DNA from: Hordeum vulgare subsp. vulgare
Taxonomy: Eukaryota > Streptophyta > Magnoliopsida > Poales > Poaceae
NCBI RefSeq assembly: GCF_904849725.1
Contig: NC_058518.1
Span: forward strand, 411,811,081 to 411,875,080
Direction of reading: 5' to 3'
DNA length: 64,000 bases
The notes below the pieces were generated by a model, which was not told where the DNA came from, did no database searches, and was given only the letters and a program-made list of their open reading frames with translations. Position numbers and translations under genes: made by a program. Below are positions 14,476-52,787 of the stretch, piece after piece (positions within the stretch are counted from its first letter, which is position 1; each line of letters starts with the position of its first letter).

Positions 14476-14551
14476 TGTAGAGAGAGATTTTGTTGATGCA
14501 ATTCATAATGTATTGATTGGATGCATGCGCGCGCGCACACACACATATATA
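14476..14551 (-). mobile_element. Ty1-copia 3' LTR, distal part
   Basis: Read on the minus strand this is the end of a short LTR, finishing ...TCTCTCTACA at 14476. It begins in a TA/CA/CG dinucleotide tract where the pararetrovirus is inserted. The other half lies at 23819-23922. Together they make an LTR of about 180 bp. Confidence 0.55.
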
Positions 14552-15067
14552 TATCAATCATTCGGGCGCGGAGGACATATACTCCGACTGAATGCATTTA
14601 GGAATTTAGAATCTTAGTGTATATTGATATGAAATATCAATTATATGGGCAGGGAAGACCCCCTTCAAAAAAAAATGCAGCATGTATGCGTACGCATATC
14701 AATAGCCAATGCACACACATGTGCATGTTTCCAGCTAAGTATGCTCGCGTACACATATCAGCAGGCAGTGTACGGACACATGCATATCCAAAGATTGTAA
14801 TATTACTGAAGATTAAAGTCCAAGACAAAATCATGACGAAGAAGAAAATCAAAAAAGAAGACAATGCCACCTCCATTGGCAGCCAAGACATGGTGTGCAA
14901 ACCTCTCCAACATGCACTCAATACCCTAGAAAGAAGGGCTATAATGGCTACAAAGCCTATAAAGCCTAGAAGGCCTAAAAACTAGGTGCATGATGGACAA
15001 GGAGAAAGAAGAAGGAAATAATAGAGGAGCCTTCTCCCGGAAGCCATCCAAGAGGTGCTCTCTTGCC

Positions 15068-15074
15068 TATAAAA
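15068..15074 (+). promoter_or_regulatory. TATA box of the pregenomic RNA promoter, left copy
   Basis: TATAAAA in the context GCCTATAAAAGGAGG, followed by a purine-rich start region. The expected RNA start is about 15095-15105. The spacing to the poly(A) signal (about 130 bases) and to the primer site (about 780 bases) fits the tungrovirus layout. Confidence 0.7.
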
Positions 15075-15199
15075 GGAGGAGCCTTGCTGCGAAGAGAGAC
15101 ACCAGACGGAGAAGAACCAGCCACAGATAGAGCACAGAGTTGCAACTCAGCTAGCAAGCTCTTTGCTCAAGTAGTAGTAGTAGTACTTCCTCATCGTGT

Positions 15200-15205
15200 A
15201 ATAAA
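15200..15205 (+). terminator. Poly(A) signal AATAAA, left copy
   Basis: AATAAA lies about 125 bases after the TATA box. In Caulimoviridae it is bypassed on first passage, and the copy in the right repeat (23327-23332) would end the RNA, giving a short terminally redundant transcript. Confidence 0.65.
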
Positions 15206-15277
15206 GAGCTACAATATTTAGAGCATTTGTAAGCTCGCGAAGGTAGTTAGAAGGTAATTTCTTTATCCTTGTGTAAA

Positions 15278-15300
15278 CCCTTCGGGGGTTCCCGAAAGGG
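15278..15300 (+). other. Leader hairpin, left copy
   Basis: CCCTTCGGG, a GGTT loop and CCCGAAAGGG form a strong stem. The same hairpin is in the right repeat near 23405-23427. A structured leader is a known feature of the family, where it supports ribosome shunting. Confidence 0.6.
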
Positions 15301-15846
15301 AAAACCATATGTAAATTATGTTGTGGAAATGATGTAGTTTCGTGTTTTCACTTGGTATTTTATTTTTGAATTTATGGAACAAGTTCTTATGCTAGGGATC
15401 CTATAGGAGAAAACTCTGCCGGTAGTTCTCTGTGTAGCCTTTTATGGCATTTGAATGAGAACCTTATGGCCGTAGAGAAGTGTTCCCTTCGGGTGGAACT
15501 GCCTGGGAAGACGATAGGAATTTACTCCATAAATTTGCAACTAAAACATCAAGTGAACGAACTTAGCTACATCTGAAACAACATAATGATAAATATGGTG
15601 AGTACTGAGTAGGATATTACACCACTGCGTACACCTCAGTCGTCTTGTTGGCCTCGACAGCCCCTCAAAGATCCTGCAATATAAGCGATATAATTTAAAA
15701 ACATTTCGTATTAAAAATAATATAAAATAAATAAATAAGTTTGTATTTACTCGTATACGTAATCACGTATATCAACATTTAAAACCTGAATTTATAACTT
15801 AATATAGTTTAGATTTATTATAAATATTTTAATTATTCTGTATATT

Positions 15847-15864
15847 TGGTATCAGGTCCAGCGT
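15847..15864 (+). other. Primer binding site for reverse transcription, tRNA-Met type
   Basis: TGGTATCAG at 15847-15855 matches the complement of the 3' end of initiator tRNA-Met; the following bases match only partly. It sits just before ORF1 and about 750 bases after the inferred RNA start, as in tungroviruses. This point defines nucleotide 1 in the family numbering. Confidence 0.75.
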
Positions 15865-15871
15865 TTTAAAC

Positions 15872-16345
15872 ATTGATAGGTTAAAGTATTTAAATTTAGA
15901 AGTTAGCGCAGGTAAGGTAATAAATACTAAAGAGAATATTAATATAAGGTGCAGAATAAATCCTTCTGAAGAGCATACCTGGCATACATCTCATAGCCAG
16001 CTAAATACAATTGTCGATTTGATATATAACTTTTACATATCTTGGGGGAAAAGACAAGATAATTTAGACCAAAAATTTGAGAGTTTATCCAAAGAATACC
16101 AAAAGCTTGCGGATAAATATTCTGGTCTGAACAATAAAATTGATCTCGCCTTACATAAGCTAGAAGAAGCAAAGGCCAGGCAGAACGTACTTTGCAAGAA
16201 TAACGATTATATTAAAGAAGAAGTGTTGTCAATTGGCCGTTACCTAAGTAAAGGCAAAGACTCACTCCCTCGCACAGAAGCAAGACAAGATATCCTCGAT
16301 ATAAAGAAGTTGCTGCAAGAAGTTAAAACTTTGATTGTCTCATAA
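15872..16345 (+). CDS. Pararetrovirus ORF1, no ATG start
   Basis: The frame is open from 15833 to the TAA at 16343-16345 and contains no ATG at all. The first plausible start is ATT at 15872, 25 bases after the primer site begins, giving about 157 residues; ATT 15938 and TTG 16019 are later options. Rice tungro bacilliform virus ORF I is known to start at AUU, so the layout agrees. The second half is Lys/Glu-rich with heptad-like spacing around EAKAR and LDIKKLL, suggesting a coiled coil. The role of the family protein is uncertain. The next gene begins 4 bases after the stop. Confidence 0.7.
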   Translation: MDRLKYLNLEVSAGKVINTKENINIRCRINPSEEHTWHTSHSQLNTIVDLIYNFYISWGKRQDNLDQKFESLSKEYQKLADKYSGLNNKIDLALHKLEEAKARQNVLCKNNDYIKEEVLSIGRYLSKGKDSLPRTEARQDILDIKKLLQEVKTLIVS

Positions 16346-16349
16346 TTAT

Positions 16350-16634
16350 ATGACTGAATATAGCCAAGCATTAAACGAAGTAGCCAAATACTTGTCACCT
16401 CCTGTAGGATTTTCTGATCACGACTCACCAAAAGAAGACTCTAAAATTATAATAAGACAAAATAATACAATTCTTCAGCTATTAATCCAAGTTTTAGACA
16501 AGCTAAAAAGTGTCCAGAACAACAAAGAAATTGTGCTATCGTCATCTGGAATCGTAACATCATCAAGAAATATTAATCCAGAAAAATGGACATATCTAAA
16601 GGCTTCCTTAGAAGAGATAAAACCCTCCAATTAG
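16350..16634 (+). CDS. Pararetrovirus ORF2, small virion-associated-type protein
   Basis: ATG 16350 opens 94 codons to TAG 16632-16634. The in-frame TTG at 16335 would overlap ORF1. There is no internal ATG in this frame, and ORF3 starts inside its end (49-base overlap). That suits translation of ORF1, ORF2 and ORF3 from one RNA by leaky scanning. Sequence features are a helical middle (LLIQVLDKLKSV) and a basic, Lys/Pro C terminus. In tungro- and badnaviruses the product at this position binds the coat protein and nucleic acid; that role is inferred from position. Confidence 0.75.
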   Translation: MTEYSQALNEVAKYLSPPVGFSDHDSPKEDSKIIIRQNNTILQLLIQVLDKLKSVQNNKEIVLSSSGIVTSSRNINPEKWTYLKASLEEIKPSN

Positions 16635-19600
16635 TAAGGCAAGACTCAAGACCACTCGCAATGAAGCATAGATTATCATGTAAAGCCGATGATATTGATA
16701 GTATTGAAGAAGTTATAGATATTCAGAGAGACCTCGAAAGATATCAAAAGGATACCCTAAGAAAAATAAAACCGCAACAGGTATATCACATGGGTATGTT
16801 TGAGAGTAAGAGCGGGTTATACCGAATATCTAGAGAAGTAGAACTAAGTGTGTTAACACACCCAGTTGATTTAAGAATAGTAAGCAAAAATATTGAAAAT
16901 GAACTAAAATATTGTGGTTACAAATATATTCATCAAGGTATGTATATTATAGGAGTTAAAGGTATGACAAGAAAGAAATTAGGAGCAAAGGTGCTTATAA
17001 CTCTATTAGACCGAAGGTGGGAATCAGTAGATAAAGCAGCATTAGGATTTTTAGAAGGAGACATGAATGAAAATAGATTAATAACCTATATAGCTCCAGA
17101 CCTAATGATGCCTGTAAAAGAATTTATTGAAAAAATGAGTTTTGGTTTCCAAACTAAGGGATATGAAGATTTTAAAGGAACAAATTTGTTAGTAAGCATA
17201 GAATTTATAGGAAGGCTCACTAACAGAAGTAACTCTAGATATAGAGTTAATGTGAGCGATGTAATTGATAGTATGCAATCAAAGGGTATTAAATTTACGA
17301 ATCCACTTAAAATTGGTTCTGAAGAAACAACGGGAGAAGAATGGAAGATTGGTGAATTAATAGAGAAAAAAGAATTAAAGCAACCTGAAAACTATATAAG
17401 TTATCAAAATTGTGAAGGAAGTAGTAGCATTAGATTTATGAACTATAAATCGGCATCAATAGAAGACGCAGAATCCTTTATGTCAGAAACAGAATCTATT
17501 GACGATAAGAATAAAGGTGTGACCGAATGCATGGAAAAGGCTAATTTAGATGATGAAATAATTCACTGGGAAAATACGCTAAAGCATATAGATTGGGAAT
17601 ATAAAAATTCTGTGACAAAAGATTGGCCTAAGATAAGAGAAAGAGAATTGTTTATAATTAGAGAAATTGCAAGGTTAAAAAAACTAAAAAATGAGAAAAA
17701 GTTGGTAACTAGTGGTTCAATTATGCCAAATACATCATCAATTGAAAGGGGAGAACATGCTGGTAGTAATAATGATGCTATCACTAATAGAGATAAGAAT
17801 ATTGCTCAGGAAGAAGAATTTGTTAGTGAAGAAGAGCAATGGGATATAAATAATAAGTTATTACTAGAAAGTTATGAAGAGGAAGAGGAATTAGTAAAAG
17901 ATATGTGGTTAGAAGATGAAAATTATAATGATTCGGAGCAGAATAGTGATTTTTATAACTCACTAGATGATGTGCGACTACAAAATTTAGACAATGCAAT
18001 GGAAGCTATGGAAGTAGAAAGTAGTAATAAAAGAAGAAAGGGATATGGCGAGTCTTCGGTAAAAAGAGAAGGAGAGAGAGAGAGACCTACCAGATCAGTT
18101 GGACAATGGCCTCCAGAAAAGGATGATTATCAACCTACATATATCCCTGGACAATATAGATATATGGGTGCTAAAAGAAGAGATTTTGAAAAGCCAGTGC
18201 AATTTCAAAATTATAAGAATGATGGCGCTATTTTAAACCTAGCAGCTCATGACCCGATAGATTGGCCGAATATAATCAACATATGGAAAGGTTTAATAGT
18301 TCAAAAATATATAAAAAATCAGTATAATATAGGAACTAAGGTAGAAGATATTTTAACATATCTTGAAACATTTTTAGGAGAATCTGTAAAAGTTCTATGG
18401 GAACAATGGGTAGAGACATATCCTAATCAGTATGAAGAATTAAAAAGGGCCGGAAGTAATCCTAATAACTTTGCAAATGTTATTTCAAATATGATCATCG
18501 CAGAAGACCCGGAATTAGGATATACCTCACTACAAAACGAAAGGTTGAGAGAAATAGAAAAACTAACATTAACTAGCTGGAAAGGAATAAAAGAATTCTC
18601 TCAACATTATTTATATAATGCTACCACTGCGAAGCAAGGGTTTAATGTAGGTGTTGTAGAAAGATATTTTAATAAGTTGCCAGACCCTCTAGGATCCATA
18701 ATATTTGAAGAATATAAAAAAGAAACAGGCGGAAACGTGGTAAATATATCTCAAGCCATAACATTTGTTTTTAAACAATTAAGAAAGGTATGTACAGGCA
18801 TACAAGCCCAAAGGTCTATGAAGAAGTCAGAATACAATTTCTGCAATAACATTGTCCAAATACCGCTTACGTATGGAGAAGAAAGGCATCGGAAAAACAA
18901 ATATTATAAACCACAAAGGAGAGATAATAGAAATTTTAGAACAAAGAAAAGATATTTCTTGAGAAGGTCCGATAATAGAGCCCCATTCTTGCATAAAAGA
19001 AATGTAAGAAGATATAATCCTAAGAAATCATATGATAAAACATGCAGGTGTTTCATATGTAACTCTCCCGATCACTTAAGTAGAACTTGCCCTAATAAAG
19101 ACCAGAAAAGGTACTCTAGCAAATATGAGGAGCAAGAGAGAGTATTAATAGTAGATAGTGTTAATGAGAATATTTTGGTATGTGATGATGAAATAAAAGA
19201 CGACGAGTCAATATATTCAATCATAGAGACAGATGAAGTAGAAAATGAGACTCCAGAATATGAATCAAGCGATGATGAAATAGACCTAATTGATGAATTA
19301 GCCGGTTTAAAGATCGAAATGATGAATCAAGTAGATTGTGAACATGACTGGATTAAAGGAAAAGGGGATTATAACATAAAATGTGCTTTCTGTATATATT
19401 ATCCTAGCCAAGATAATAGATTCACATGTAGTTTATGCTTAAAGCAAGCATGTACCTCCTGTCTAAAAGTCAGTAATCAAAAATGGAGACAGGAAATAGA
19501 ATGGGAGCCAGAAGAAAGAATATTATCCAGCAGGGTTAGAAACTTAGAAAATAGAATAAATAAGCTAGAAGCAGAATTAGAAAAGCTAAAGGATGAATTA

Positions 19601-21079
19601 GAAGATAATAAAGAGCAAGATAATAAGGTTGCAAAAATCACAGAGATGAAAGAACAAATGATAACAATAAGGGATAAAAAAGGAGATAAATTAATACAAT
19701 TAAAAGATGCAATAACTAGTTTTGGAAACAAATATATTGTTCGATTACCATTCAAAGAAGTGTTAGGGATAAGAATCCCAGTTAGAATAGTTCTAAAGCC
19801 AAACATTTCTTATAAAGTGTTAGCGCTACTAGATACGGGTTGCACAAAGAACATCATACATGATAAATATTTCATGAGATGTCCAGAAATAGTTGAAACT
19901 ATAGATAATAATAAAGCTGAAGTATCTACCGATATGTCAGGAATAAAGAAAATCCACAACCAGTTAGCATATAATATTGAAGCATACATAAATGGCACGA
20001 AATATATAATAGATGAAATTACAATAAGAGATTTATCAGTAATAAATGATGACATGATAATAGGGTTGAGGTTTTTACAACAGTCTTTACAAACTACAAT
20101 TATACATGAAGAAGGGGTTACATTTATCCCTTATCAAGATAATCTCCCATACATATCTGAAGCAAGAAAGCAAAGAAAAGCTTTGCAAAATGTAGAGATA
20201 TCTAATTTGGATGGAGAATATAGTACAAGTCCAGAGGTAGCCCTTGAATTCTGTAAAGATGAAGAACTTAGTGAGACCATAGAAGAATATCATATAGAAA
20301 ATACAAGTACAGAATGCATAGCATTACAATCATTTTCACCAAATTGGTATAGAGACATAAAATCCAAAAAAGATATAGATAAGATAGTGCAAAGATTAGA
20401 AAACATACAAATTATAGGGGAAATACCGATGAAACATTGGGAAAGGAACTCTATAGTTTGCAAAATAAATATTATAAATCCAGACTATATCATTAAGTCA
20501 GGGCCAATAGAAGCTACTCCTAAAGATATTGAAGAGTTCAAAATGCATATTGAGGAATTGTTAAAATTAAAAGCAATTAGAGAAAGTAGAAGTCCTCATA
20601 GGTCTGCTGCTTTTACAGTGAGAAATCATGCTGAAGAGGTGAGAGGTAAATCCAGAATGGTAATTAACTTTAAAAGGCTTAATGATAATACGGTAGATGA
20701 TGCATACAACATACCTAATAAACAGGAATGGATCAATAGAATACAAGGAAGTAAATTTTTCTCTAAATTTGACTTAAAAGCAGGGTTTTGGCAAGTGAAA
20801 ATGGCCGAAGAATCCATTCCATGGACTGCCTTTACTTGTCCACAAGGCCATTATGAATGGCTAGTAATGCCATTGGGTCTAAAGAATGCACCTGCACTAT
20901 TTCAAAGGAAAATGCAAAATATATTTAATGAGAACCAAGCCTTTATATTAGTATACGTAGATGATTTGTTAGTATTCTCAAAATCATATAAAGAACATAT
21001 AGCCCATCTCGAAGTGTTCTTTCGCAAGGTAGAACAAAATGGGCTCATATTATCAAAAAAAGAAGATGGAAATTTGTAA
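16586..21079 (+). CDS. Pararetrovirus ORF3 polyprotein: movement, coat, protease, reverse transcriptase (frame breaks in RT-RNase H)
   Basis: An open frame of 1497 codons. Order: 30K-type movement protein region at about residues 60-235; an acidic, Glu-rich linker at about 270-480; a coat region at about 510-860 ending with a CCHC zinc knuckle (CFICNSPDHLSRTC, residues about 822-835); a second Cys/His-rich cluster at about 920-960, as in badna- and tungroviruses; a coiled coil at about 985-1020; an aspartic protease with DTG near residue 1081; and RT with its YVDD catalytic motif near residue 1456. The frame ends at TAA 21077-21079, just after a seven-A run (21055-21061). RT-RNase H coding continues in the next frame. 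No nonsense codon was found upstream. The product would be cleaved by its own protease. Confidence 0.9.
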   Translation: MDISKGFLRRDKTLQLVRQDSRPLAMKHRLSCKADDIDSIEEVIDIQRDLERYQKDTLRKIKPQQVYHMGMFESKSGLYRISREVELSVLTHPVDLRIVSKNIENELKYCGYKYIHQGMYIIGVKGMTRKKLGAKVLITLLDRRWESVDKAALGFLEGDMNENRLITYIAPDLMMPVKEFIEKMSFGFQTKGYEDFKGTNLLVSIEFIGRLTNRSNSRYRVNVSDVIDSMQSKGIKFTNPLKIGSEETTGEEWKIGELIEKKELKQPENYISYQNCEGSSSIRFMNYKSASIEDAESFMSETESIDDKNKGVTECMEKANLDDEIIHWENTLKHIDWEYKNSVTKDWPKIRERELFIIREIARLKKLKNEKKLVTSGSIMPNTSSIERGEHAGSNNDAITNRDKNIAQEEEFVSEEEQWDINNKLLLESYEEEEELVKDMWLEDENYNDSEQNSDFYNSLDDVRLQNLDNAMEAMEVESSNKRRKGYGESSVKREGERERPTRSVGQWPPEKDDYQPTYIPGQYRYMGAKRRDFEKPVQFQNYKNDGAILNLAAHDPIDWPNIINIWKGLIVQKYIKNQYNIGTKVEDILTYLETFLGESVKVLWEQWVETYPNQYEELKRAGSNPNNFANVISNMIIAEDPELGYTSLQNERLREIEKLTLTSWKGIKEFSQHYLYNATTAKQGFNVGVVERYFNKLPDPLGSIIFEEYKKETGGNVVNISQAITFVFKQLRKVCTGIQAQRSMKKSEYNFCNNIVQIPLTYGEERHRKNKYYKPQRRDNRNFRTKKRYFLRRSDNRAPFLHKRNVRRYNPKKSYDKTCRCFICNSPDHLSRTCPNKDQKRYSSKYEEQERVLIVDSVNENILVCDDEIKDDESIYSIIETDEVENETPEYESSDDEIDLIDELAGLKIEMMNQVDCEHDWIKGKGDYNIKCAFCIYYPSQDNRFTCSLCLKQACTSCLKVSNQKWRQEIEWEPEERILSSRVRNLENRINKLEAELEKLKDELEDNKEQDNKVAKITEMKEQMITIRDKKGDKLIQLKDAITSFGNKYIVRLPFKEVLGIRIPVRIVLKPNISYKVLALLDTGCTKNIIHDKYFMRCPEIVETIDNNKAEVSTDMSGIKKIHNQLAYNIEAYINGTKYIIDEITIRDLSVINDDMIIGLRFLQQSLQTTIIHEEGVTFIPYQDNLPYISEARKQRKALQNVEISNLDGEYSTSPEVALEFCKDEELSETIEEYHIENTSTECIALQSFSPNWYRDIKSKKDIDKIVQRLENIQIIGEIPMKHWERNSIVCKINIINPDYIIKSGPIEATPKDIEEFKMHIEELLKLKAIRESRSPHRSAAFTVRNHAEEVRGKSRMVINFKRLNDNTVDDAYNIPNKQEWINRIQGSKFFSKFDLKAGFWQVKMAEESIPWTAFTCPQGHYEWLVMPLGLKNAPALFQRKMQNIFNENQAFILVYVDDLLVFSKSYKEHIAHLEVFFRKVEQNGLILSKKEDGNL
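21055..21061 (+). other. Seven-A run at the polyprotein frame change
   Basis: The run sits exactly where the upstream frame loses homology and the downstream frame begins. A length change in a homopolymer is the simplest cause, either mutation after integration or a sequencing error. No other frame change was found in 4.5 kb of upstream polyprotein. Confidence 0.8.
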
Positions 21080-21794
21080 AGAAAGAATAAATTTCCTTGG
21101 TCATGAAATAGGAGAAGGAAAAATATATTTGCAAGAACACATTGCAAAGAAAATTTTAGAGTTTCCTGATAATATGAGTGATAAAAAAGTTCTACAACAA
21201 TTCTTAGGAATTGTAAACTATGCAAGAAATTACATAGATAACCTAGCAAAGCTAGCCGGACCTTTATATGCTAAATTAAGAAAGAATGGTCAGAGATATT
21301 TTAACTCTGAAGATATAAAATTAGTAAAGGCCATCAAAGAAAAAGTCAAGAATTTAAAGCCCCTAGAATTGCCTCTAGAAGATAATTATTTTATTATTGA
21401 AACAGACACATCTAAAGTAGGATGGGGTGCTATATTAAAACAAAAACCTAATAAATATTCCCCGAAAGCAGATGAAAAAATATGTAGATATGCTTCACGA
21501 AGTTACAAGTTAAAAACGGTAAATAATATTGATAGAGAAATCCTTGCAGTTGTAAATGCAATAAATGCTTTTAGGTTATATCTAGGATTCAAAGAATTTA
21601 CAGTGCGAACTGATTGTGAAGCCATATGTCGATATTATAATAAAATTAATAGTAAGAAAAGTTCAACCAGAAGATGGGTCTTATTTGAAGACACCATAGC
21701 TGGGAATGGTTATAAAGTTATTTTTGAGCATATTAAGGGAAAAGATAATACTTTACCTGACATATTTTCTCGTGCATCAAATTTGCAGAAATGA
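21062..21794 (+). CDS. Pararetrovirus RT C-terminal part and RNase H (displaced frame)
   Basis: Directly after the seven-A run the RT thumb/connection sequence resumes in another frame and runs to TGA 21792-21794. An ATG at 21039 lies in this frame but is not a natural start. The RNase H domain has its first acidic catalytic motif (IETDTSKVGWGA) near 21400 and further conserved stretches (DREILAVVNA near 21530, RTDCEA near 21610). The last four bases overlap the start of ORF4 as ATGA. As the copy stands, this part would be made only by frameshifting or not at all. Confidence 0.85.
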
Positions 21795-22639
21795 AGAAAG
21801 GATTATTCCCCACCAGGGACGAATGCTTCTTCTTTGGAGAGGAGAACAGGCTGAAGATATTTCAGCCAAATACCTTCAATTTCAAGCCAAAGGCCCATAT
21901 CAAGCTTGATGAAATTCAGAGGTGCATACTGGACAATTTCTGGTTCCAATATACCAATAAGAGAGATGAAAAAGGATATATGCTATCAATTCTAAATAGC
22001 TTGGCAGAATATTTTAACCAAATGAATATGAAGGCGGCAAAACTAGAAAGGGCTGAAATACAAAAAGGAGAAATATTATATGTTTTATTTGACGGAAATA
22101 AACCCGGAATATATTTGACATGGGAAGACATCATGATAGAGAAACTAGATGCAAAACGAATGGGACAAGACTTAACATTCAAAAAATATGAAGGTATTGA
22201 TGAGGCCTTGTTTTGGGCAAGAAAAATGATAGGGGAAAACTATTATATTGACCCCAAGGCTAAAGATTATATCCAGAAGAGAAAGAATGCAGATAACAAT
22301 GCATCTAATATGCCAATATTTAAAATAACCAAGGGAGAATCATCAGGAAAGAATATAAAGGAAGAAGGTTCTCCAAAAAATTATACATATAAAGAATGCC
22401 TTCTGAAGGGCCTAGACCCTTTGGATAGTGAATATATAGATCAAGAAATGGATAAAAGATTTGAAGAATTGTCAAAAATAATGAAGAAAGAATTAAAGGA
22501 AGAGATATTAGAAGAAATAAGGGTTGAAATGAAAATAAGATTTGAAGATATAAAGAAAGAATGTGATACGAAGTATGATTTCCATCTCTTAGATGAGGAT
22601 CATATGGATATCGCAGGGCATGGGCAGCCACCTGAGTAA
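21791..22639 (+). CDS. Pararetrovirus ORF4
   Basis: ATG 21791 overlaps the polyprotein stop as ATGA and opens 282 codons to TAA 22637-22639. A separate gene at this place is the mark of tungroviruses; badnaviruses lack it. The rice tungro bacilliform virus product is longer (about 390 residues by memory) and comes from a spliced RNA. The N-terminal half holds conserved-looking aromatic motifs. The C-terminal 80 residues are Glu/Lys-rich with hydrophobic heptads (near 22450-22570), predicting a coiled coil. The function in the family is not settled; a leucine-zipper-like and possible silencing-related role has been discussed. The copy has no visible lesion. Confidence 0.8.
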   Translation: MKKGLFPTRDECFFFGEENRLKIFQPNTFNFKPKAHIKLDEIQRCILDNFWFQYTNKRDEKGYMLSILNSLAEYFNQMNMKAAKLERAEIQKGEILYVLFDGNKPGIYLTWEDIMIEKLDAKRMGQDLTFKKYEGIDEALFWARKMIGENYYIDPKAKDYIQKRKNADNNASNMPIFKITKGESSGKNIKEEGSPKNYTYKECLLKGLDPLDSEYIDQEMDKRFEELSKIMKKELKEEILEEIRVEMKIRFEDIKKECDTKYDFHLLDEDHMDIAGHGQPPE

Positions 22640-23194
22640 AACCCAACTTCAAATGTCACTGAATTTGAATTGATATTACTATCAATCATTCGGGCGCGGA
22701 GGACATATACTCCGACTGAATGCTGATAGGAATTTAGAATCTTAGTGTATATTGATATGAAATATCAATTATATGGGCAGGGAAGACCCCCCTCAAAAAA
22801 AATGCAGCATGTATGCGTACGCATATCAATAGCCAATGCACACACATGTCCATGTTTCCAGCTAAGTAAGCTCGCATACACATATCAGCAGGAAGTGTAC
22901 GGGCACATGCATATCCAAAGATTGTAATATTCCTGAAGATTAAAGTCCAAGACAAAATCATGACGAAGAAGAAAATCAAAAAAGAAGACAATGCCACCTC
23001 CATTGGCAGCCAAGACACGGTGTGCAAACCTCTCCAACATGCACTCAATACCCTAGAAAGAAGGGCTATAATGGCTACAAAGCCTATAAAGCCTAGAAGG
23101 CCTAAAAACTAGGTGCATGATGGACAAGGAGAAAGAAGGATGAAATAATAGAGGAGCCTTCTCCCGGAAGCCATCCAAGAGGTGCTCTCTTGCC

Positions 23195-23201
23195 TATAAA
23201 A
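23195..23201 (+). promoter_or_regulatory. TATA box, right repeat copy
   Basis: TATAAAA in the same context as at 15068. If active it would direct transcription rightward out of the provirus into the copia and CACTA sequence. Confidence 0.6.
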
Positions 23202-23326
23202 GGAGGAGCCTTGCTGCGAAGAGAGACACCAGACGGAGAAGAACCAGCCACAGATATAGCACAGAGTTGCAACTCAGCTAGCAAGCTCTTTGCTCAAGTA
23301 GTAGTAGTAGTACTTCCTCATCGTGT

Positions 23327-23332
23327 AATAAA
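23327..23332 (+). terminator. Poly(A) signal AATAAA, right repeat copy
   Basis: Same position relative to the TATA box as in the left repeat. A transcript started at the left TATA box and ended here would be a unit-length, terminally redundant pregenomic RNA. Confidence 0.6.
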
Positions 23333-23818
23333 GAGCTACAATATTTAGAGCATTTGTAAGCTCGCGAAGGTAGTTAGAAGGTAATTTCTTTATCCTTGTG
23401 TAAACCCTTCGGGGGTTCCCGAAAGGGAAAACCATATGTAAATTATGTTGTGGAAATGATGTAGTTTCGTGTTTTCACTTGGTATTTTATTTTTGAATTT
23501 ATGGAACGAGTTCTTATGCTAGGGATCCTATAGGAGAAAACTCTGCCGGTAGTTCTCTGTGTAGCCTTTTATGGCATTTGAATGAGAACCTTATGGCCGT
23601 AGAGAAGTGTTCCCTTCGGGTGGAACTGCCTGGGAAGACGATAGGAATTTACTCCATAAATTTGCAACTAAAACATCAAGTGAACGAACTTAGCTACATC
23701 TGAAACAACATAATGATAAATATGGTGAGTACTGAGTAGGATATTACACCACTGCGTACACCTCAGTCGTCTTGTTGGCCTCGACAGCCCCTCAAAGATC
23801 CTGCAATATAAGCGATAT

Positions 23819-24034
23819 GTCTATATATATATATAATACAATATGGGTCTTAACCTCAATTATACGAAGGCTAGGAGATGGACTAAGCTATACACATATA
23901 CATGCAAACTATATGTTCAACACCCCCCTCCCCCGCGCAGTCGAAGTAGTGCCGGAGACGCACAGACTGGGCCTGAACTTCTCAAAAAGGAACTGGACAA
24001 TCCCTTTGTCATAACATCGGCGAACTACTGCGTC
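23819..24034 (-). mobile_element. Ty1-copia pol end, polypurine tract and proximal 3' LTR
   Basis: On the minus strand 24034-23940 reads as a degraded C-terminal piece of copia RNase H (FEKFRPSLCV and an upstream remnant of the usual DxxTKGL motif). A polypurine tract follows (plus-strand C run 23923-23934), then an LTR start TGTTGAAC at 23922. The LTR runs into a TA repeat at 23823-23838, where the pararetrovirus begins. The upstream part of pol is cut off by the CACTA end at 24035. Confidence 0.65.
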
Positions 24035-24948
24035 CACTAGTAGAAAATGACCCATTTGTCTTTTTAAGAATGCGGTCATAGTTGGAATCCAGCGGAGGCC
24101 GTGGTGGTCGCTTCAGGGCATTGATAGTGCGTGTCACTTTCATCGGATCTAGCTTCTCCTTCGGAGGTGGAGTTTTTTTTGCAAAATGTTTCCTCAATTG
24201 GGCACGACATATGTCCTCATTTTCCCGCGCGGTCCTCTCATATGGTAACTTTTCCAAAGGCTTGAGAGATGGACCGTATCTCCCGCCTCTGCTTGTACTG
24301 CTATCCACCGGAGCGACGACATCTCTCTTCCGTCGTTGCTGACGAGGCACAGGAGGAGGCGGACTGCTCTGACGCACAAGAGGAGCCGGAGCGGCGGCGG
24401 CTGTCTTCCGCCGTTGTCGACGAGGCGAAGCAGGAGGCGGACTGCTCTGACGCGCCGGAGTAGGCGAAGGAGGAGGCGGAGTGCCCTCACGCGTCAGAGG
24501 AGCCGGAGAAGGAGGCGGAGTGCCCTGATCAATCGCCGGAGGAGGTGGAGTGCCCTGACTCGTCGTCGTCGGAGGAGGAGGTGGAGACGTCCAGTTTGGA
24601 AGCTTGATGTATTCCTTCTGCCATAGACATGTACTCCTGAGAGCACGAACCAACTGATTCTCCCCTTCACGTGTAGGGTGGTCAAGCTCGAGCTCCTCAA
24701 ATCCCTCCATTACTTGATCCACCATCACAACAGAATAGCCATGTGGAATCGGAAGGCGGTGAAAAGTTCCGTTGGGTTGAGGAGGTGCAACAGAGCCGAC
24801 AGCCGCCTTGAAAGTGAGGTTCGAGCATTTCGTCATAAGCTCGCAATGTTGAGACTTCGTGATAGTATCCACGGGGTAGCTAGGAGCCGTGAAGTCAGAT
24901 TGAACGGGCTCCGACGAAGCTACGCTGCTTCTCAGCTGAGATGGCGGG
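24035..24948 (-). mobile_element. CACTA transposon, terminal segment with 3' part of accessory ORF
   Basis: CACTAGTAGAAAA at 24035 is the typical terminus of grass CACTA (En/Spm) elements; the 3 bases before it (GTC) may be the target duplication. The segment encodes, on the minus strand from 24948, the later part of a proline-rich CACTA accessory protein. It has a conserved block around residues with SVVMVDQVMEGFEELEL, then tandem PPP-Q/E-GTPPPP-type repeats, then a basic C terminus. The frame stays open through the TIR into copia DNA (stop at 24009-24011), so the true end is uncertain. The gene continues upstream at 33163 across the Athila insertion. Confidence 0.75.
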
Positions 24949-26577
24949 TGATACTGCAACAAAAGACCTTCCAATGGCGCCAGAAATAGGCACGTTGACG
25001 GGTGAATACTTGGCTTGATCCTTCTGCTGCGGCTACGCCTTAAGGGACTTCCTAGGCAAGTATGCAAAGGATTTCCCCCATGGCCTTGGAGCCTTGCGTT
25101 GGTGTTCCCTCGAAGCGGAAAGGGTGATGTAGCATAGCGGTGGTAAGTATTTCCCTCAGTTTGAGAACCAAGGTATCGATCCAGTGGAGGAGTATCACAA
25201 GAGCCTGCACAAACACAAAAAGCTTGCTCCCATCGCTATGAAGGGGTTGTCAATCCCTTATAGATTGTTTGCCAAGTGAGAACTGAAAGCAACAAAGTAA
25301 CAAAGCAAAGTAAAAGCGGAGGTGTAAACAATGGATGTGAATAGACCCAAGGGCCGTAGTGTTTACTAGTGGCTTCTCTCATGAAAGCAAGTAGACGGTG
25401 GGTGAACAAATTACTGTCGAGCAATTGATAGAACCGCGCAAAGTCGTGACGATATCTATGGCAATGATTATATCTATAGGCATCACGTCCAAAACAAGTA
25501 GATCGATACTTTCTGCATCTACTACTATTACTCCACACGTCGACCGCTATCCAGCATGCATCTAGTGTATTAAGTCCAAAAGAACAAAGTAACGCCTTAA
25601 GCAAGATGACATGATGTAGAGGGATAATCTCAAACCAATGATGAAAACCCCATCTTTTTACCCTTGATGAAAACTACTTAATGTGTGTCTTGCTGCCCCT
25701 ACTGTCACTGGGAAAGGTCACCACATGGTAGAACCCAAAACCAAGCACTTCTCCCATTGCAAGAATCATAGATCTAGTTGGCCAAACAAAACCCAAGACT
25801 TGGAGAGACTTACAAGGATATCAAATCATGCATATAAGAAATCAGCAAAGACTCAAATATATATCATAGATAATCTGATCACAAATCCACAATTCATCGG
25901 ATCTCGACAAACACACCGCCAAACAAGATTACATCGGATAGATCTCCATGAAGATCATGGAGAACTTTGTATTGAAGATCCAAGAGAGAGAAGAAGCCAT
26001 CTAGCTACTAACTACGGACCCGTAGGTCTGAAGTGAACTACTCACGAGTCATTGGAGGGGCGATGATGATGATGAAGAAGCCCTCCAACTCCAAAGTCCC
26101 CTCCGGCAGGGTGCCAGGAAGGGTCTCCAGATGAGATCTTGTGGAAACGGAAGCTTGCGGCGGCGGAAAAGTATTTTCGAGGCTCCCCTCATTTTTTGCT
26201 GAATTTTTGGGAATATATAGGCCAAGGATCTAGGTCAGGGGCGGCCAGGGAGGCCACAAGCCCTGACACCGCCGCCTCCCCCTGGTGGCGGAGTGGGAGC
26301 TTGTGGGCTCCCTGGAGCCGACCTGTCTTGGCCAAGAGGACCCCTGATCTTCTTCCGTTCGGGAAAAAAATCATTTCGGGGTTTTTATTCTGTTTGGACT
26401 CCGTTCCAAAATCAGATATGAAAAGAGTCAAAAACACAGAAAAAATAGGAACTGGCACTTGGCACTGAATTAATAAGTTAGTCCCAAAAAAGATATAAAA
26501 GGTACATAAAACATCCAAAGATGACAAGATAACAGCGTGAAACCGTTAGAAATTATAGATACGTTTGAGACGTATCA
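24949..26577 (-). repeat. 3' LTR of the Athila-type element
   Basis: 1629 bp, matching 31530-33157 with substitutions and small indels. A TATATAT motif on the minus strand at 26213-26219 is a possible promoter TATA box. Confidence 0.85.
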
Positions 26578-29327: not shown

Positions 29328-31288
29328 TTATTTTCTTTCTAGGAAAGAGATCCATGCCCTTTTAAAAGGAAACTGAAATCTCATATTCCCTTCCTTCATA
29401 TCGATGATAGCACCAATAGTCCATAGGAAAGGTCTACCAAGAATAATGGGACATGAAGGATTGCAATCTATGTCAAGTAAAATGAAATCCATGGGTACAT
29501 AGTTCTTATTTGCAACAAGAAGAAAATCATCGATCCTTCCCATGGGTTTCTTGACAGTAGAATCCGCAAGATGCAAATTAAGAGAACACTCTTCAATCTC
29601 ATGAAAACCAAGAATATCACATAAAGACTTTGGAATCGCGGAAACACTAGCACCCAAATCACACAAAGCATTACACTCATAGTTTTTTATTTTGATTTTG
29701 ATAGTAGGTTCCCACACATCATGAAGTTTTCTAGGTATAGATACTTCTAGTTCGAGCTTCTCTTGAAGAGATTTCATCATAACATCTACGATATGCGCGG
29801 TAAAGGCTTTGCTTTGGCTATAAGCGCGTGGAGAGTTTGCAATGGATTGCATCAAAGAAATGCATTCAAACAAGGAGCAATTATCATAATTGAATTCCTT
29901 GAAATCCAAAGTGGGAGTTTGATTACTTCCCAAAATTTTGACTTCTTCTACTCCACTCTCCACACCTTTATCATCAAGATAGGTGGACTCCGAATCATTG
30001 GGCCGTTTTTCAACCAAAGTGGATTCATATCCAGCCCCTCCATAAGTAGGTGTGACACGCGAAAACAAAGATGCAAGAGGAGACACACCAAGCACTTTAG
30101 GATCTTCGTGATTTGCATCACTAGAACGCACCCTTTTAAACCATTCATGTCTAGCGCGAATTTGGGCAGTTCTTTCTTTGCTCTCATTCATGGAGATACG
30201 CATAGCTTTCAAAGTTTCATCCAAGTTGACCTTGGGAGGAGCGCATCTAACTTTCAAAGCATCAATATCACAAGACATTCTATCAACGCTTTTAGCCAAA
30301 TCGTCTATTTTGAGTAGTTTTTCCTCTATGGACGCATTGAAAATCTTTTGAGAGTTGATGAACTCTTTGATATTACTCTCTAGATCAGAGGGTAATTTGT
30401 TGTGATTTCCATAAGTGTTGTCGTAGGAATTGCCATAATTGTTAGAGGAGTTACTAGGAAAAGGCCTAGGAACATAGTTTCCTCTAAAAGCATTATTGTT
30501 GCCAAAATTGTTCCTACCAACAATATTCACGTCCAAACTAGCGTTGCTACTCTCGATCAAAGAAGATAGTGGCATGTCATTAGGATCTACGGTAGCGTTT
30601 CTACTAGCAACCAAATTTATCAACTCGTCCATCTTAGCACTAAGCAAGTTAATCTCTTCTATAGCGTGCACCTTTTTGCTAGCAGGCGACCTTTCAGTGT
30701 GCCACTGAGAGTAGTTGGTCATGATATTGTCTAGGAGTTTTGTAGCGTCTCCTAACGTGATTTCCATGAACGTTCCACCTGAGGCGGAGTCCAAGATATT
30801 GCGAGAAGCGAAATTCAAGCCAGGGTAAAAGATTTGTATAATCATCCACAAACTCAAGCCATGAGCGGGACAATTTCTAATCATAAGCTTCATCCTCTCC
30901 CAAGATTGTGCAACGTGTTCATGATCAAGTTTCTTGAAATTCATGATATCGTTACGTAAGGAGATGATCTTAGCCGGCGGAAAAATACTTGGATATGTAA
31001 GCATCTTTGCACCTATCCCAAGAATCGATACTATTTTTAGGCAAAGAAGAAAACCAAGTTTTTGCGCGATCTCGCAACGAGAAAGGAAAAAAGTTTCAAC
31101 TTAATCACGTCATTATCCACATCTCTTTTCTTTTGCATATCGCAAAGCTCAATGAAGGTATTGAGATGGGATGCGGCATCTTCACTAGGAAGGCCAGAGA
31201 ATTGCTCTTTCATAACAAGATTCAGCAAAGCTGCGTTGATTTCATATGATTCCGCACTAGTGGCGGGAGCAATCGGAAGAAGTCGCAT
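29328..31288 (-). pseudogene. Athila-type gag-protease, frameshifted
   Basis: The gag N terminus is readable from ATG 31288 to 31037 (SYEINAALLNLV block). It then shifts frame near 31010-31050 and continues as a 558-codon frame from 31004 to 29328. That frame has the gag core (FASRNILDSASGGTF near 30790), an acidic linker, and at its C-terminal end a retroviral-type aspartic protease with DLGAS in place of DSGAS (near 29650) and the ILGRPFL motif (near 29430). DLGAS is normal for Athila and does not itself mean inactivity. The usual ATG for this family probably lies further upstream near 31309 in another frame, implying a second small lesion. Confidence 0.75.
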
Positions 31289-40914: not shown

Positions 40915-43900
40915 CTAAGACTGAAAGAAATCGGGAAATTCGGAACGGAGGTGATCCTCGCGTTCCCAAGTCGCCTCTTTATCTGAATGGTGTGACCACT
41001 CCACTTTGAGAAATTTGACAGTCTTGTTACAGGTCTTGCGCTCAGTCGCCTCGAGAACCGCAACTGGATGCTCACGATAAGAAAGGTCAGGCTGAAGGTC
41101 GATATCTTGAAGATGCACAGTGCGCTCGGGGGTCTTGAAACACCTCCGAAGCTGAGAAACATGGAACACATCATGGACATTTGCAAAGGTTGACGGGAGC
41201 TCGAGCTGGTACGCAAGGTCGCCTCTCTTGCCAACCACTCTGAACGAACCAATGAAACAAGGCGCAAGCTTGCCTTTGATGCCAAAGCGCTGCATACCCT
41301 TCATAGGCGACACCTTGAGATAGACAAAGTCATCAAGCTCATAAGACATGTCACGGTGCTTACTATCATAGTAGCTCTTCTAACGGGACTGAGCTGCTCT
41401 GAGGTTGTCGCGAATGATCCGACACATCTCCTCGGCTTCTTCTATCATATCATTGCCAAGGATCTGACACTCGCCGGTCTCGGACCAGTTGAGCGGAGTA
41501 CGACACTTTATACCATAGAGAATCTCAAACGGAGCCTTGCCAGAACTAGCTTGATAACTGTTGTTATACGAGAACTCCGCAAAAGGCAGACAATCTTCCC
41601 ACTTCATGCCAAAAGAGATAACACAGGCTCTCAACATGTCCTCAAGAATTTGATTCACTCTCTCCACTTGACCACTAGTCTGAGGATGGAACGTTGTGTT
41701 GAAGCGGATCTTCGTGCCCATAGCAGACTGAAAAGAATCCGAGAACTTGGAAGTGAAGATACTTCTGCGATCTGAAGAGATCATCATAGGTACGCCGTGC
41801 AAAGAGACAATCCTGGAGGTGTACAACACTACCAGCTGAGCTGCTGAAATGGACTCCTTGACTGGAAGGAAATGAGCCACTTTACTCAATTTGTCGATGA
41901 CGACGAAGATAGCATCATTGCCCTTCTTGGACTTCGGGTACCCGGTGAAGAAATCCATCTCAATGTGATCAAACTTCCACTCAGGAATCGGCAACGGCTG
42001 CAAGAGACCTGTTGGGCGTTGATATTCCACTTTCACCCTTCGACATACATCACACTCGTTTACGAACTGAGCAATCTCACGTTTCATATGAGTCCACCAG
42101 AATGTGTGCTTCAAGTCATGGTACATTTTGGAGCTTCCAGGATGAATATAGAGCAGAGAGTTATGAGCTTCTTCCATGACCACCTTCCTGAGATCACCTT
42201 TCGGGACGACAAGGCGATCCTCGAAAAACAACGTGTCCCTGGCATCAACAGTGAAGCACTTATACTTGGGGAGACTCTTTCCCACGCCAATCTTGACCTT
42301 CTTCACCATAGCGTTAAGAAGCTGAGCTGCTCTGACCTGATCTTCCAAGGTAGGAGAGATCTGAAGGTTCGCAAGAAATCCCTACGGTACTAGCTGAAGG
42401 TTGAGCTTCCTAAAAGACTCACAAAGACCCGGCTGGAGAGGTTGCAGAATCAGACTGTTGCAATATGCCTTCCTGCTCAATGCATCCGCCACGACATTTG
42501 CCTTGCCTGGCATGTACTCAACACTCGGATTAAAATCCTCAAGCATTTCCACCCAACGTGTTTGCCTAAGATTCAAGTTAGGCTGAGTGAAGATGTACTT
42601 GAGACTCTTGTGATCGGTGAAAACTTCAACCTTACATTCCAACAAGAGATATCTCCAAGTCATCAAGGCGTGTACCACAGCTGCTAGCTCGAGATCATGC
42701 ACAGGATAGTTCTTCTCCGCAGGCTTCAACTGCCTGGAGGTATAAGCAACCACCTTCTTATCTTGCATCAAGAATGCACCAAGACCCTGGAGAGAAGCGT
42801 CGCAAAAGATCTGGTACGGCTTGGAATCATCCGGAGGGGCCAAAACCGGAGTGGAGATAAGCTTCTCTTTGAGTGTATCGAAGGCCAGTTGACACTCTGG
42901 AGACCAAGCATACTTAACACCCTTCTGAAGAAGACTTGAGAGCGGCTTAGCGATCTTGGAGAAGTTCTCAACGAACCTTCTGCAATATCCAGCAAGCCCG
43001 AGAAAGCTTCGAATCTACTTCACATTCTGCGGAGGCTCCCATTCAACAATGGCTTGAAGCTTGGACGGATCAACTTTAATGCCCTCGGCAGAGATAATGT
43101 GCCCAAGATAAACCACTTCTTTCAGCCAGAACTCACACTTGGAAAACTTAGCATACAACTTGTACTCTCTCATCTTATCAATCACCAATCTGAGATGTAC
43201 TTCATGTTCTTCCTCAGTCTCAGAAAAGACCAGAATGTCGTCGAGATAGAGCAAGACAAATTCATTCTTGTAAGGGGAGAAAATATAGTTCATCAATCGA
43301 CAGAATGTCGGAGGAGCATTAGCCAGACCAAAATACATGACCGTATACTCAAACGAGCCAAAACTAGTCTTGAATGCCGTCTTCGGAATGTCTTCCTCGC
43401 GAATGCGAATTTGATGATAGCCCATTCTGAGATCAAGCTTGGAGAATACTTTAGCACCTTTCAACTGTTCGAACAACTCAGTTATGTTCGGAAGTGGATA
43501 TTTGTTCCTCATTGTCTTCTTGTTCAATGAACGGTAATCGACACACAGCCGGTCCGTGCCATCCTTCTTCTTGACAAAGAGAACACCACAACCCCATGGA
43601 GACGAGCTCGGTCTGATCAAACCCAAATGCTCCTGCTCATCGAGTTGCCTCTTAAGTTCCTTCAATTCTTCCGGACCCAGCTTGTACGGCCGTTTGCACA
43701 CTGGCTCTGTGCCTGGCTCAAGCTCAATGACAAACTCAACTTCACGGTGCGGAGGCATGCCTGGCAGCTCTTCAGGAAACACATCTTGATATTCGCAGAC
43801 TACTGGAACTTTCTCAATAGGATTGATCTCACCCTTTTCATTCAAGGAGAACAAACGGATTGTATCATCGCGCGCCGCGAATATAATCACATCCTCCGAA

Positions 43901-45354
43901 GAGTGGGTAAGCTTCACTTCTTTGGCTTCGCAATCAATTGACGCCTTGTTCATGGCCAGCCAGTCCATACCAAGAATCAAGTCGATGTCGGAATTGCCCA
44001 AAACAATAGGAGATGCCAGAAAAGCATAAGCGCCCATCTTGACAGAAACATCTGGGACGAACAACTGAGAGCTCATCCGCATACCCGGAGACACAACTTG
44101 CAATGACTTGGGAAAGAACTCGGTCGCAATATTATTACCAAATGCAAAGGGGTATGCCATGAAGGAATGCGAAGCACCAGAATCAAATAACGCTTTAGCA
44201 GGGATATCATTGACGAGGAGGTTACCCATAATCACATCTGACGAGTTCTCTGCTTCATATGCATTCACCATGTTGACTCGAGCTGATCTGGGGTTGAACT
44301 TGACAAGAGCATTGCTTGGAGGTTTGCCTGGAGGAGGAGGCGGCAGTCGGAGCTGAGAAGTACATTTGTTGGCATAGTGACCCTTCTGCCCACATTTGTG
44401 ACAAGTGACATCTGCTGGCTGCCGGTACTGAGTTTGAGGAGATCCTTGCCTCTGATGCTGAAATCTCTGCTGGAAGCCAGGGTTGGGTGGGTGGGAAGAA
44501 CCGCGACCACTTGAGTGCTTAAGCTGATGCGAGTGCCGAGGAGGAGGAGGAGAAACCCAAAACCTCTGTTGCTTCTGAACCACCTGAGTCGAGGAAGAGC
44601 TGGAATCTCTGAAGCACTTCTTGGAATTTTCCACCCTGAGCAAGGATGCCTCTGCTCTGAGAGCTAGGTTGTAGAACTTGTCAAACTCCTCAGGATCGTG
44701 CAAGGCAAGAGCTAACTGCAAGTCTTCTTTCAAGCCACCCCTGAACTGATAGATCTTGCTCTTCTGATCCGGGATATCTTGCAGCGCGTAACGGGCCACC
44801 TCGTGGAACTCGACATTGTACTTGTACACGGAATTGTCGCCCTGCTTCAAACGCGTGAACTTCTCACGCATCTCCTCCACAAAACTGGAAGGGATGTAGT
44901 GGGACCTGAAGTCACGACAGAACTCGTCCCAAGACATCACCCTGGCGCCTCTGGAGTCCTTGAGCTGCTGCCACCATATAGAAGCCTGTCCCTTCAACTA
45001 AAACATTGCAAACTTGACATAGTCCTCCAGACACACATTGCTACACTCGAAATGTTTGTTCATATCACGGATCCAATCTTCTGCATCAAATGGCTGGTCG
45101 CAAGAAGTGAACGTCTTAGGCTGGTTCGACAGAAACTGACTCAGACTCGCAAACTGATTTCCACCATGTTGAAAATTGCCTGGCTGTTGGTTGGCTCTCT
45201 CTTGTAGCAACTGAATCAGCACCTGAGTGTTTGCATTAGTAGCTGCCATCACCGCTTGCCATGCCTCTGCAGGAGGAGGCGGCGGAGGAGGAGGAGGAGG
45301 TGGTGGAGGCGGCATATCCTCACGCCCTGGGTTCTGACGAGTCGGTGGAGCCAT
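40915..45354 (-). pseudogene. Chromovirus gag-pol polyprotein, one frame with four in-frame TAG stops
   Basis: A single frame of 1480 codons from ATG 45354 to TGA/TAG-side end 40915, interrupted by TAG at 44998-45000, 43015-43017, 42382-42384 and 41380-41382 and by no frameshift. Order on the minus strand: poly-proline N terminus and gag (45354-44410), CCHC knuckle [14 protein letters not shown] (about 44355-44400), protease with DSGAS (about 44190), RT with YLDD (about 43240), RNase H (FCDASLQG near 42800, [10 protein letters not shown] near 42610), and integrase with its HHCC finger (about 42170-42040). The catalytic DDE core (about 41970-41660) and a chromodomain (EWSHHSDKEATWE near 40975) follow. 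Nearly all motifs are intact, so decay is recent. Confidence 0.9.
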
Positions 45355-51719: not shown

Positions 51720-52787
51720 ATGTCATCCGGTGGAGATCTGAGCATGGGTCACGAGATCCTCTTCGGCGCTCTCTCCTTCATCGTCGACGATTCGGCATGG
51801 CTTCGGGATGCCCCTCTTGAAGTCGAGGCGCTCCCCAGTTGCGGGGCTACGCACTTCCTTGCCGGCGCCCGCGGTATTCTTCTTCTCCAGCAGTCGGCTC
51901 CGGTGTCGACCTACGCCGCCATCGCGCGCCGCAACAAGCGGTCCCGCCGTCCGCGGCTCCAGCGTTGGGTGCAACACGCCCAGGCGCGCCAGAACGCGTC
52001 CTCACAAGTGGCGGTCCTAGAGTCGGTTGTGGTTGCACCGCCGTCCCAGCCCTCGGACTCAGTTCCGATTGAGTTTCCTTCCGAGTACTTGGGTCGTGGG
52101 CCTGCAGCTGAGGTGCACATGGCCAACTCCCATGAAAGTCCCCGCAAAACTGGCCGGAACGAGCACGAGGTCGGCGAAACATCCGGCGCTCGCCGTCAGC
52201 CCCACCGTTCTGCCAGTCGGCACACTCGGCGGAGCAACGTGGAGGTGTTTCGCACACCCGTCCTCAACCTGGCTGCCGCCGCCAGGATAGCCGATTCTCT
52301 CCAGCTGACTGATTCAGAGGCTGGCAGAGGGATCGAGCAAATCCGTGCCCTGCTGCATATGGCGCAGCAGCAAAATTCAGCGGTCTCCCAGTCGCACAAC
52401 AGGATTCACAATAGTTCTGTTCACGCGAACACGCATCGGTCCGTTCACAGCCCCGGTTCTCATCAGCGACATAGGGGAGGCAGTCGTTCCATGAATCCCG
52501 AAGATCGTCGCCGCTCACGCACCCCTCCGCGGGGTGGGCCCTATGGGCCCCGACATCATGATGATCGGCGTTCAGTCGGTGACACTTATGATCCAAGGCC
52601 CGACGCGAGAGGGCATATCGCCCAGAGGAGGGTTGACAGGGGCCGAGCCCACCGCGATGGTCACGATATGGACCGTCCGAGTGGAAGCAGGACCATCGCC
52701 TCTGACCCGAGTGTTTCAGTCGAGCCATCCGTTCGACTGACATCCCTCCCAACTTCCAATTGGCGACGGGGATCAGCAAGTTTATAG
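51720..52787 (+). pseudogene. Tat-lineage gag, N-terminal part
   Basis: Starts at ATG 51720, 48 bases after the primer site; the frame is open upstream but that part lies in the primer site. It is Arg/Ser/His-rich from residue 120 with an RSRTPPR-like basic tract near 52510, typical of the long disordered gag N terminus of this lineage. The frame ends at 52787 while the gag core begins in another frame near 52760, so there is a frameshift at about 52740-52785. Confidence 0.7.

What the first reader, a model, noticed from the sequence alone, without database searches (positions are those of the whole stretch)
14552..23818. Near-intact endogenous tungrovirus-like pararetrovirus in a Triticeae-type genome
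Seen: all four tungrovirus-order genes, Met-tRNA primer site, zinc knuckle, second Cys cluster, DTG protease, YVDD RT, RNase H, separate ORF4, and repeats spaced 8128 bases apart. Known: endogenous tungrovirus-like copies in grasses are usually rearranged fragments. Inference: this is a complete recent capture of a virus related to, but distinct from, rice tungro bacilliform virus, and a candidate type copy for a poorly described grass lineage.
Basis: partly seen in the sequence, partly recalled or inferred. Interest (0 to 1): 0.92.

Follow-up and report, generated by a model that had tools for sequence, protein, structure and literature searches.

The report
Near-complete endogenous grass orendovirus copy
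A grass chromosome holds a slightly more than full-length, almost undamaged copy of a plant DNA virus from a group already known from wheat relatives and rice, and its last gene looks like a relative of the transactivator gene of cauliflower mosaic virus's kin.

Summary
Window 14552-23818 is a caulimovirid insert: one 8128-nt unit plus a 1140-column terminal repeat at 98.6% identity, between (AC/AT)n and (TA)n host DNA. ORF1 (no ATG), ORF2, ORF3 and ORF4 are present. Of the 25 best RT relatives, 13 carry RT and RNase H strings in one chain and none has the window's tail. The lineage is already described: the RT lies in a 13-row clade with Triticum, Lolium and Oryza (100/99). [quoted passage not shown] The main correction is ORF4: a transactivator/viroplasmin (TAV, PF01693) family protein by profile and predicted structure, as in Dioscovirus and, per one paper, unlike RTBV. 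Signals fit leaky scanning and perhaps a spliced ORF4 RNA. Some public contigs near unit length leave a circulating virus open. Copy number, host, RTBV and Aegilops tauschii virus placement could not be tested.

The parts
14552..23818 (+). whole insert: 1.14 units of an orendovirus genome (unit 8128 nt)
   Evidence: terminal repeat and spacing
14552..15691 (+). left copy of the terminal direct repeat
   Evidence: 98.6% to 22680-23818 over 1140 columns
22680..23818 (+). right copy of the terminal direct repeat
14536..14551 (.). host side of left junction: (AC)n(AT)n microsatellite
   Evidence: sequence read; no target-site duplication beyond TA repeats
23819..23837 (.). host side of right junction: (TA)n microsatellite
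15068..15074 (+). TATA box of the pregenomic RNA promoter (second copy at 23195)
   Evidence: motif; transcription start near 15098 is inferred, not mapped
15200..15205 (+). AATAAA polyadenylation signal (second copy at 23327)
   Evidence: motif
15304..15599 (+). large leader stem-loop; a start-stop AUG-UAA (15309-15314) sits at its base
   Evidence: 411-nt fold -130.5 kcal/mol, z -5.43, 0 of 100 shuffles as good; outermost pair 15304-15599; arms also found by blastn; start-stop
15598..15603 (+). candidate splice donor GTGAGT, the only GTRAGT in the 8128-nt unit
   Evidence: 3.3 expected by shuffle; P of one or none 0.13
15847..15858 (+). candidate initiator Met-tRNA primer-binding site, 10 of 12 bases
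15833..16345 (+). ORF1 (stop-to-stop frame, no ATG; non-AUG start inferred)
   Evidence: same length class as rice Region x, which also lacks ATG (PMC526188)
16350..16634 (+). ORF2, 94 aa
   Evidence: 144 homologues, length conserved
16586..21079 (+). ORF3, first frame: movement protein, coat, zinc knuckle, protease, RT
   Evidence: start agrees with residue 1 of relatives P0002, P0003, P0004, P0007, P0010
16883..17206 (+). movement protein domain PF01107
18530..18859 (+). coat protein domain PF22909
   Evidence: two adjoining pieces
19046..19096 (+). CCHC zinc knuckle
   Evidence: (below Pfam cut-off), motif legible
19820..20080 (+). aspartic protease with DTG
   Evidence: PF21024 below cut-off
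20786..21061 (+). reverse transcriptase, C-terminal half of RVT_1 with YVDD
21039..21079 (+). stretch in which ORF3 changes frame (lesion of this copy)
21384..21683 (+). RNase H domain, in the second frame
   Evidence: PF17917 2.5e-17
21782..21788 (+). candidate splice acceptor TTTGCAG, the only one in the unit, just before the ORF4 start
   Evidence: 0.44 expected by shuffle
21791..22639 (+). ORF4, 282 aa, intact; start overlaps the ORF3 stop (ATGA)
22076..22228 (+). RNase H1 hybrid-binding / Cauli_VI (TAV) domain of ORF4, residues 96-146

Best explanation
The insert is an endogenous copy of a grass caulimovirid of the proposed genus Orendovirus. A linear or concatemeric viral DNA of 1.14 units was joined into a TA-rich microsatellite, most likely by host end joining because no integrase is present. 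It carries one frameshift in ORF3. In the ancestral virus, one pregenomic RNA would start near 15098. Ribosomes would bypass the leader stem-loop, start ORF1 at a non-AUG codon, and reach ORF2 and ORF3 by leaky scanning through an ATG-free stretch. ORF4 would be made from a spliced RNA (donor 15598, acceptor 21788) or by reinitiation at the ATGA overlap. ORF4 is a divergent TAV/P6-family protein carrying an RNase H1-type hybrid/dsRNA-binding domain. Shown here: the anatomy, the frame change, the grass clade and ORF4's family. Inferred: the translation route, the splicing, the manner of integration and any activity of ORF4.
For: 1140-column terminal repeat with unit spacing. Pfam domains in caulimovirid order, no integrase in the six ORF3 pieces. 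RT clade of 13 rows at 100/99, with Triticum nearest by path; named hits Triticum 95%, Avena 87%, Lolium 86%, Oryza 79-82% (coverage 63-93% of the query region), while from P0026 on no hit that covers over half the query exceeds 59% (120 of 211 listed). No ATG in 15847-16349 where shuffles give 7.6 (0 of 2000 as low), and one (the ORF2 start) before the ORF3 start. Leader fold z -5.43. ORF4: 37 of 58 family members match PF01693 at E<=0.1, best 2.8e-6, while no other family matches more than 2; profile match to a TAV-bearing relative, 98.8%, E 1.1e-16, 129 columns; beta-beta-alpha-beta-alpha predicted within residues 96-146; the five best PDB matches are the RNase H1 hybrid-binding domain; viral best matches are DNUaV ORF4 (1.4e-5) and Rose yellow vein virus TAV (2.5e-4). 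AT-repeat flanks are reported for most rice relatives (PMC526188; PMC4241990).
Confidence: 0.9

Rival explanations
1. Endogenous tungrovirus proper: a close relative of RTBV in genus Tungrovirus, with an RTBV-type P4.
For: Same four-gene order, ORF1 without ATG, leaky-scanning layout as published for RTBV, unit near 8 kb.
Against: Literature treats Orendovirus and Tungrovirus as separate genera or OTUs. ORF4 is TAV-type, which RTBV ORF4 is said to lack.
Confidence: 0.04
2. Ty3/gypsy LTR retrotransposon whose LTRs are the 1140-nt repeats.
For: Direct terminal repeats flank the coding part; several rice relatives are labelled Ty3-gypsy in databases.
Against: No integrase in the element (all six ORF3 pieces); movement and caulimovirid coat domains present; no target-site duplication other than TA repeat; the two gypsy rows of this window branch outside (98/76; long branches).
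Confidence: 0.02
3. The sequence is that of a still circulating episomal orendovirus and the insert is a young capture of it.
For: Some relatives occur on contigs close to unit length (longest 8084, 8175, 8184, 8191, 8221 nt); one ORF2 allele 99% like the window's is on 73 contigs from three sources; five relatives have a one-piece ORF3 of 1711-1736 aa.
Against: Other relatives lie on long contigs of other lengths (6373, 7173, 7536, 7703, 8567, 22098 nt) and most on short ones. Terminally redundant endogenous copies also collapse to unit-length contigs, and the contigs and their samples could not be viewed. No episomal orendovirus appeared in the paper listings and passages seen. Two scans of viral contigs found none, though that collection gave no caulimovirid at all.
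Confidence: 0.2
4. ORF4 has only a chance resemblance to TAV and is an orphan gene like RTBV P4.
For: The single-sequence Pfam match is below cut-off; a 2018 paper saw no obvious homology apart from a short TAV motif (PMC6179347).
Against: Family-wide Pfam matches, profile-profile alignment across 129 columns including about 80 residues before the motif, and structural top hits in two libraries.
Confidence: 0.07

Closest known systems
[quoted passage not shown]
   Same: endogenous caulimovirid of grasses; RT clade with wheat and rice sequences; named in PMC5766536 and PMC13308828 (passages)
Rice eRTBV / ERTBV-A, -B, -C (PMC526188, passages)
   Same: ORF1-like Region x without ATG (486-495 bp), ORF y 5133-5154 bp, ORF z 819-822 bp, AT-repeat flanks; RT protein of rice rows 79-82% identical
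   Different: published assemblies are 7.5 kb with no gene between Region x and ORF y; the window has a 94-aa ORF2 there and an 8128-nt unit; rice copies are described as decayed fragments (PMC5902531)
Dioscorea nummularia-associated virus (Dioscovirus)
   Same: 8139 bp, four ORFs, ORF3 start 47 nt before the ORF2 stop, TAV domain in ORF4 (PMC6135502 passages); best structural match of ORF4
   Different: RT only 56% identical over 51% of the query; separate branch in the RT tree; infects yam
Rice tungro bacilliform virus (Tungrovirus)
   Same: gene order, ATG-poor ORF1-ORF2 stretch, leader stem-loop, ORF4 possibly from a spliced RNA (PMC5902531 passages)
   Different: RTBV ORF4 is reported to lack a TAV domain; placed in a different genus
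CaMV P6 / TAV (PF01693)
   Same: RNase H1 N-terminal-type domain, gene position after RT-RNase H
   Different: 282 aa against about 520 aa (recalled); the rest was not aligned here; no transactivation tested

Membership tests
Caulimoviridae | MP, CP, protease, RT and RNase H domains, no integrase | tested here: met
   pieces of ORF3 (protease below cut-off); no integrase match
Caulimoviridae | Met-tRNA primer site near genome origin | tested here: inconclusive
   10 of 12 bases at 15847
Orendovirus (proposed) | RT relatedness to grass eRTBV-type sequences | tested here: met
   clade of 13 rows, 100/99, with three named Oryza rows and one identical to one of them
Orendovirus (proposed) | nearest to Aegilops tauschii virus in RT-RNase H nucleotide sequence | not testable with these tools
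   record not available
Orendovirus (proposed) | ORF1 without ATG, MP-CP-PR-RT-RH ORF, terminal ORF z | tested here: met
   compare
Tungrovirus | RT closer to RTBV than to other genera | not testable with these tools
   RTBV sequence not obtained
Tungrovirus | RTBV-type P4 without TAV domain | tested here: not met
   ORF4 has the TAV domain; RTBV lacks it per PMC6135502, not tested here
Badnavirus | RT inside badnavirus clade | tested here: not met
   nine-row clade with two named badnaviruses, 100/99, excludes the window
Dioscovirus | RT inside Dioscovirus | tested here: not met
   DNUaV groups with the badnavirus side; 56% identity
Metaviridae (Ty3/gypsy) | integrase and RT among gypsy | tested here: not met
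TAV / Cauli_VI (PF01693) | RNase H1 N-terminal-type domain | tested here: met
   37 of 58 members at E<=0.1; window sequence alone below cut-off
TAV / Cauli_VI (PF01693) | translational transactivation | not testable with these tools
   needs an assay

The most novel reading that the evidence does not exclude
Orendoviruses combine the two translation strategies thought to divide the family: leaky scanning through ATG-free leading genes, and a genuine TAV/P6-family protein, made from a spliced RNA. RTBV P4 would then be a worn-down TAV descendant, and at least one orendovirus is still circulating as free circles in temperate grasses.
Probability: 0.2. Interest if true: 0.6.

Novelty: new member of a known kind. 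Interest (0 to 1): 0.36.

Why it matters
All four genes, both regulatory ends and the unit length of an orendovirus can be read from one locus, while the rice copies are described as decayed fragments (PMC5902531); whether Aegilops copies in print are as complete was not seen. It corrects the view that no TAV homologue is recognisable in Orendovirus (PMC5902531) and turns the 2018 remark on a 'TAV motif' (PMC6179347) into a supported homology, so ORF4's function becomes directly testable. The near-unit-length contigs with intact genes raise a checkable question: do these viruses still circulate in cereals?

Tried and rejected
Two scans of viral contigs (RT alignment; ORF4) found no relative, so RTBV could not be drawn in that way. 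ORF1 against Pfam gave only below-cut-off, mostly coiled-coil matches. ORF2 structure prediction was of low confidence (pLDDT 58.6) and was not searched further. No second copy of the element in the window (four pieces against both flanks). A target-site duplication was looked for; only TA repeats are shared. Considered and dropped: a programmed frameshift in ORF3, because 13 of the 25 best relatives carry the YxDD and HIKGK strings in one chain (the other 12 lack one of these strings, some being fragments). Repeat-based dating was considered: 16 differences in 1140 columns would give about 0.5 million years at 1.3e-8 per site per year (recalled rate), but the clustering (14 of 16 upstream, P 0.0012, split chosen after seeing the positions; longest clean run 311, P 0.10, not significant) makes this at best an upper bound. 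Wheat, Aegilops and barley assemblies could not be searched.

Paper searches on this kind. The eight papers opened were seen as passages only, apart from section 7 of PMC13308828; other papers only as listings.
Full report
Observation. The two ends of the reported interval align as one direct repeat of 1140 columns, 14552-15691 against 22680-23818, with 15 mismatches and one gap, and a start-to-start distance of 8128 (repeat finder sees part of it as two blocks). The insert is therefore 1.14 copies of an 8128-nt unit. The left host side ends in (AC)n(AT)n and the right begins with (TA)n; no target-site duplication other than TA repeat is shared. Most rice relatives are likewise described as flanked by AT repeats (PMC526188, passage; also cited in PMC4241990, passage).

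Genes. ORF3 opens at 16586 and runs to 21079; the continuation with the RNase H domain is in another frame, 21039-21794. Searched in pieces, it gives movement protein, caulimovirid coat domain, a zinc knuckle and A3B protease below cut-off, RT and RNase H, in caulimovirid order. Five relatives align from their residue 1 to the window's residue 1 (P0002, P0003, P0004, P0007, P0010), which supports the start. The frame change looks private: of the 25 best RT relatives, 13 carry the YxDD and HIKGK strings in one chain and 0 of 25 carry the window's out-of-frame tail; the other 12 lack one of the strings, some because they are fragments. Relatives with a one-piece ORF3 of 1711-1736 aa exist (five rows). 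ORF2 (94 aa) has 144 homologues at E<=10; of the 120 listed, 94 are exactly 94 aa and 12 are 92 aa. ORF4 (282 aa) has 118 homologues at E<=0.01, one identical. ORF1 is a 170-codon open frame, against a maximum of 103 in 1000 shuffles, without any ATG; no homologue search was run for it.

Lineage. The tree has 51 RT rows: the window, two gypsy rows of this window, and 48 of the 50 relatives that I picked from the 120 listed (of 211); two were dropped for short overlap (P0015 Avena, P0018 Oryza). The window lies in a 13-row clade at 100/99 with Triticum, Lolium and Oryza rows, and within a six-row subgroup at 99/88. Gypsy rows are outside (98/76, long branches). The two named badnaviruses lie in another, nine-row clade (100/99), with DNUaV branching just below it. 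The backbone between the grass clade, the Dioscovirus/badnavirus side and several unnamed rows is unresolved. No row bears the name RTBV, though most rows bear none, and two viral-contig scans gave no relative, so the position relative to RTBV rests on literature: Orendovirus and Tungrovirus are separate in PMC5766536, PMC13308828 and PMC10377300, with Aegilops tauschii virus as an Orendovirus representative.

Expression signals. A TATA box at 15068 and AATAAA at 15200 (each also in the right repeat) bracket a likely short RNA redundancy. The leader folds into one large stem-loop, 15304-15599, within a 411-nt fold of -130.5 kcal/mol, z -5.43, 0 of 100 shuffles as stable. A start-stop AUG-UAA sits at its base, which is not the canonical shunt layout. 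From 15847 to 16349 there is no ATG in any frame against 7.6 expected (0 of 2000 shuffles), and only the ORF2 start before the ORF3 start. This is the layout that lets RTBV ribosomes reach ORF2 and ORF3 by leaky scanning (PMC5902531, passages). The only GTRAGT of the unit is at 15598, and the only TTTGCAG is at 21782-21788, two bases before the ORF4 start. Of the 11 relatives inspected that keep the ORF3 end, nine finish in LQE or LQK (P0002, P0003, P0004, P0005, P0006, P0007, P0011, P0013, P0014), which fits a kept CAG there, and two end FQV (P0010, P0019). A spliced ORF4 RNA is thus plausible but not shown. The 4-nt ATGA overlap of ORF3 and ORF4 would also allow reinitiation.

Age and state. 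Of the 16 repeat differences, 14 lie upstream of the estimated transcription start (P 0.0012, a split chosen after seeing the positions; the longest clean run alone is not significant, P 0.10). Neutral decay after insertion should not favour that side, so part of the difference may be variation between two viral molecules joined at integration. I treat the 1.4% as an upper bound on age. Some relatives lie on contigs whose longest is 8084-8221 nt, close to the unit length; others lie on contigs of 6373, 7173, 7536, 7703, 8567 or 22098 nt. The near-unit ones could be free circles or collapsed terminally redundant inserts; the tools could not show the contigs.

Verdict.

Noticed in passing
window 41383-44997 (-): Ty3/gypsy element: gag, protease, RT (43018-44997) and integrase (41383-42348)
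   Followed up: partly
window 52760-57609 (+): second Ty3/gypsy element: gag, RT-RNase H, RVT_3 and integrase in separate frames
   Followed up: partly
window 61732-62940 (-): Transposase_28 (putative gypsy type) match 7.5e-21
   Followed up: no
window 24009-25067 (-) and 29328-31004 (-): long open frames of 352 and 558 aa without Pfam match at 1e-5; the first overlaps a 78/39-nt tandem-like repeat at 24308-24502
   Followed up: no
protein P0028 (unnamed source): one 1304-aa chain with RT, RNase H, a below-cut-off protease-like stretch after RNase H, a PF01693 TAV domain and dUTPase: an unusual caulimovirid gene order or fusion
   Followed up: partly
proteins P0239 and P0278: ORF2 alleles on 73 and 6 contigs, longest 8184 and 8221 nt, close to unit length
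   Followed up: no
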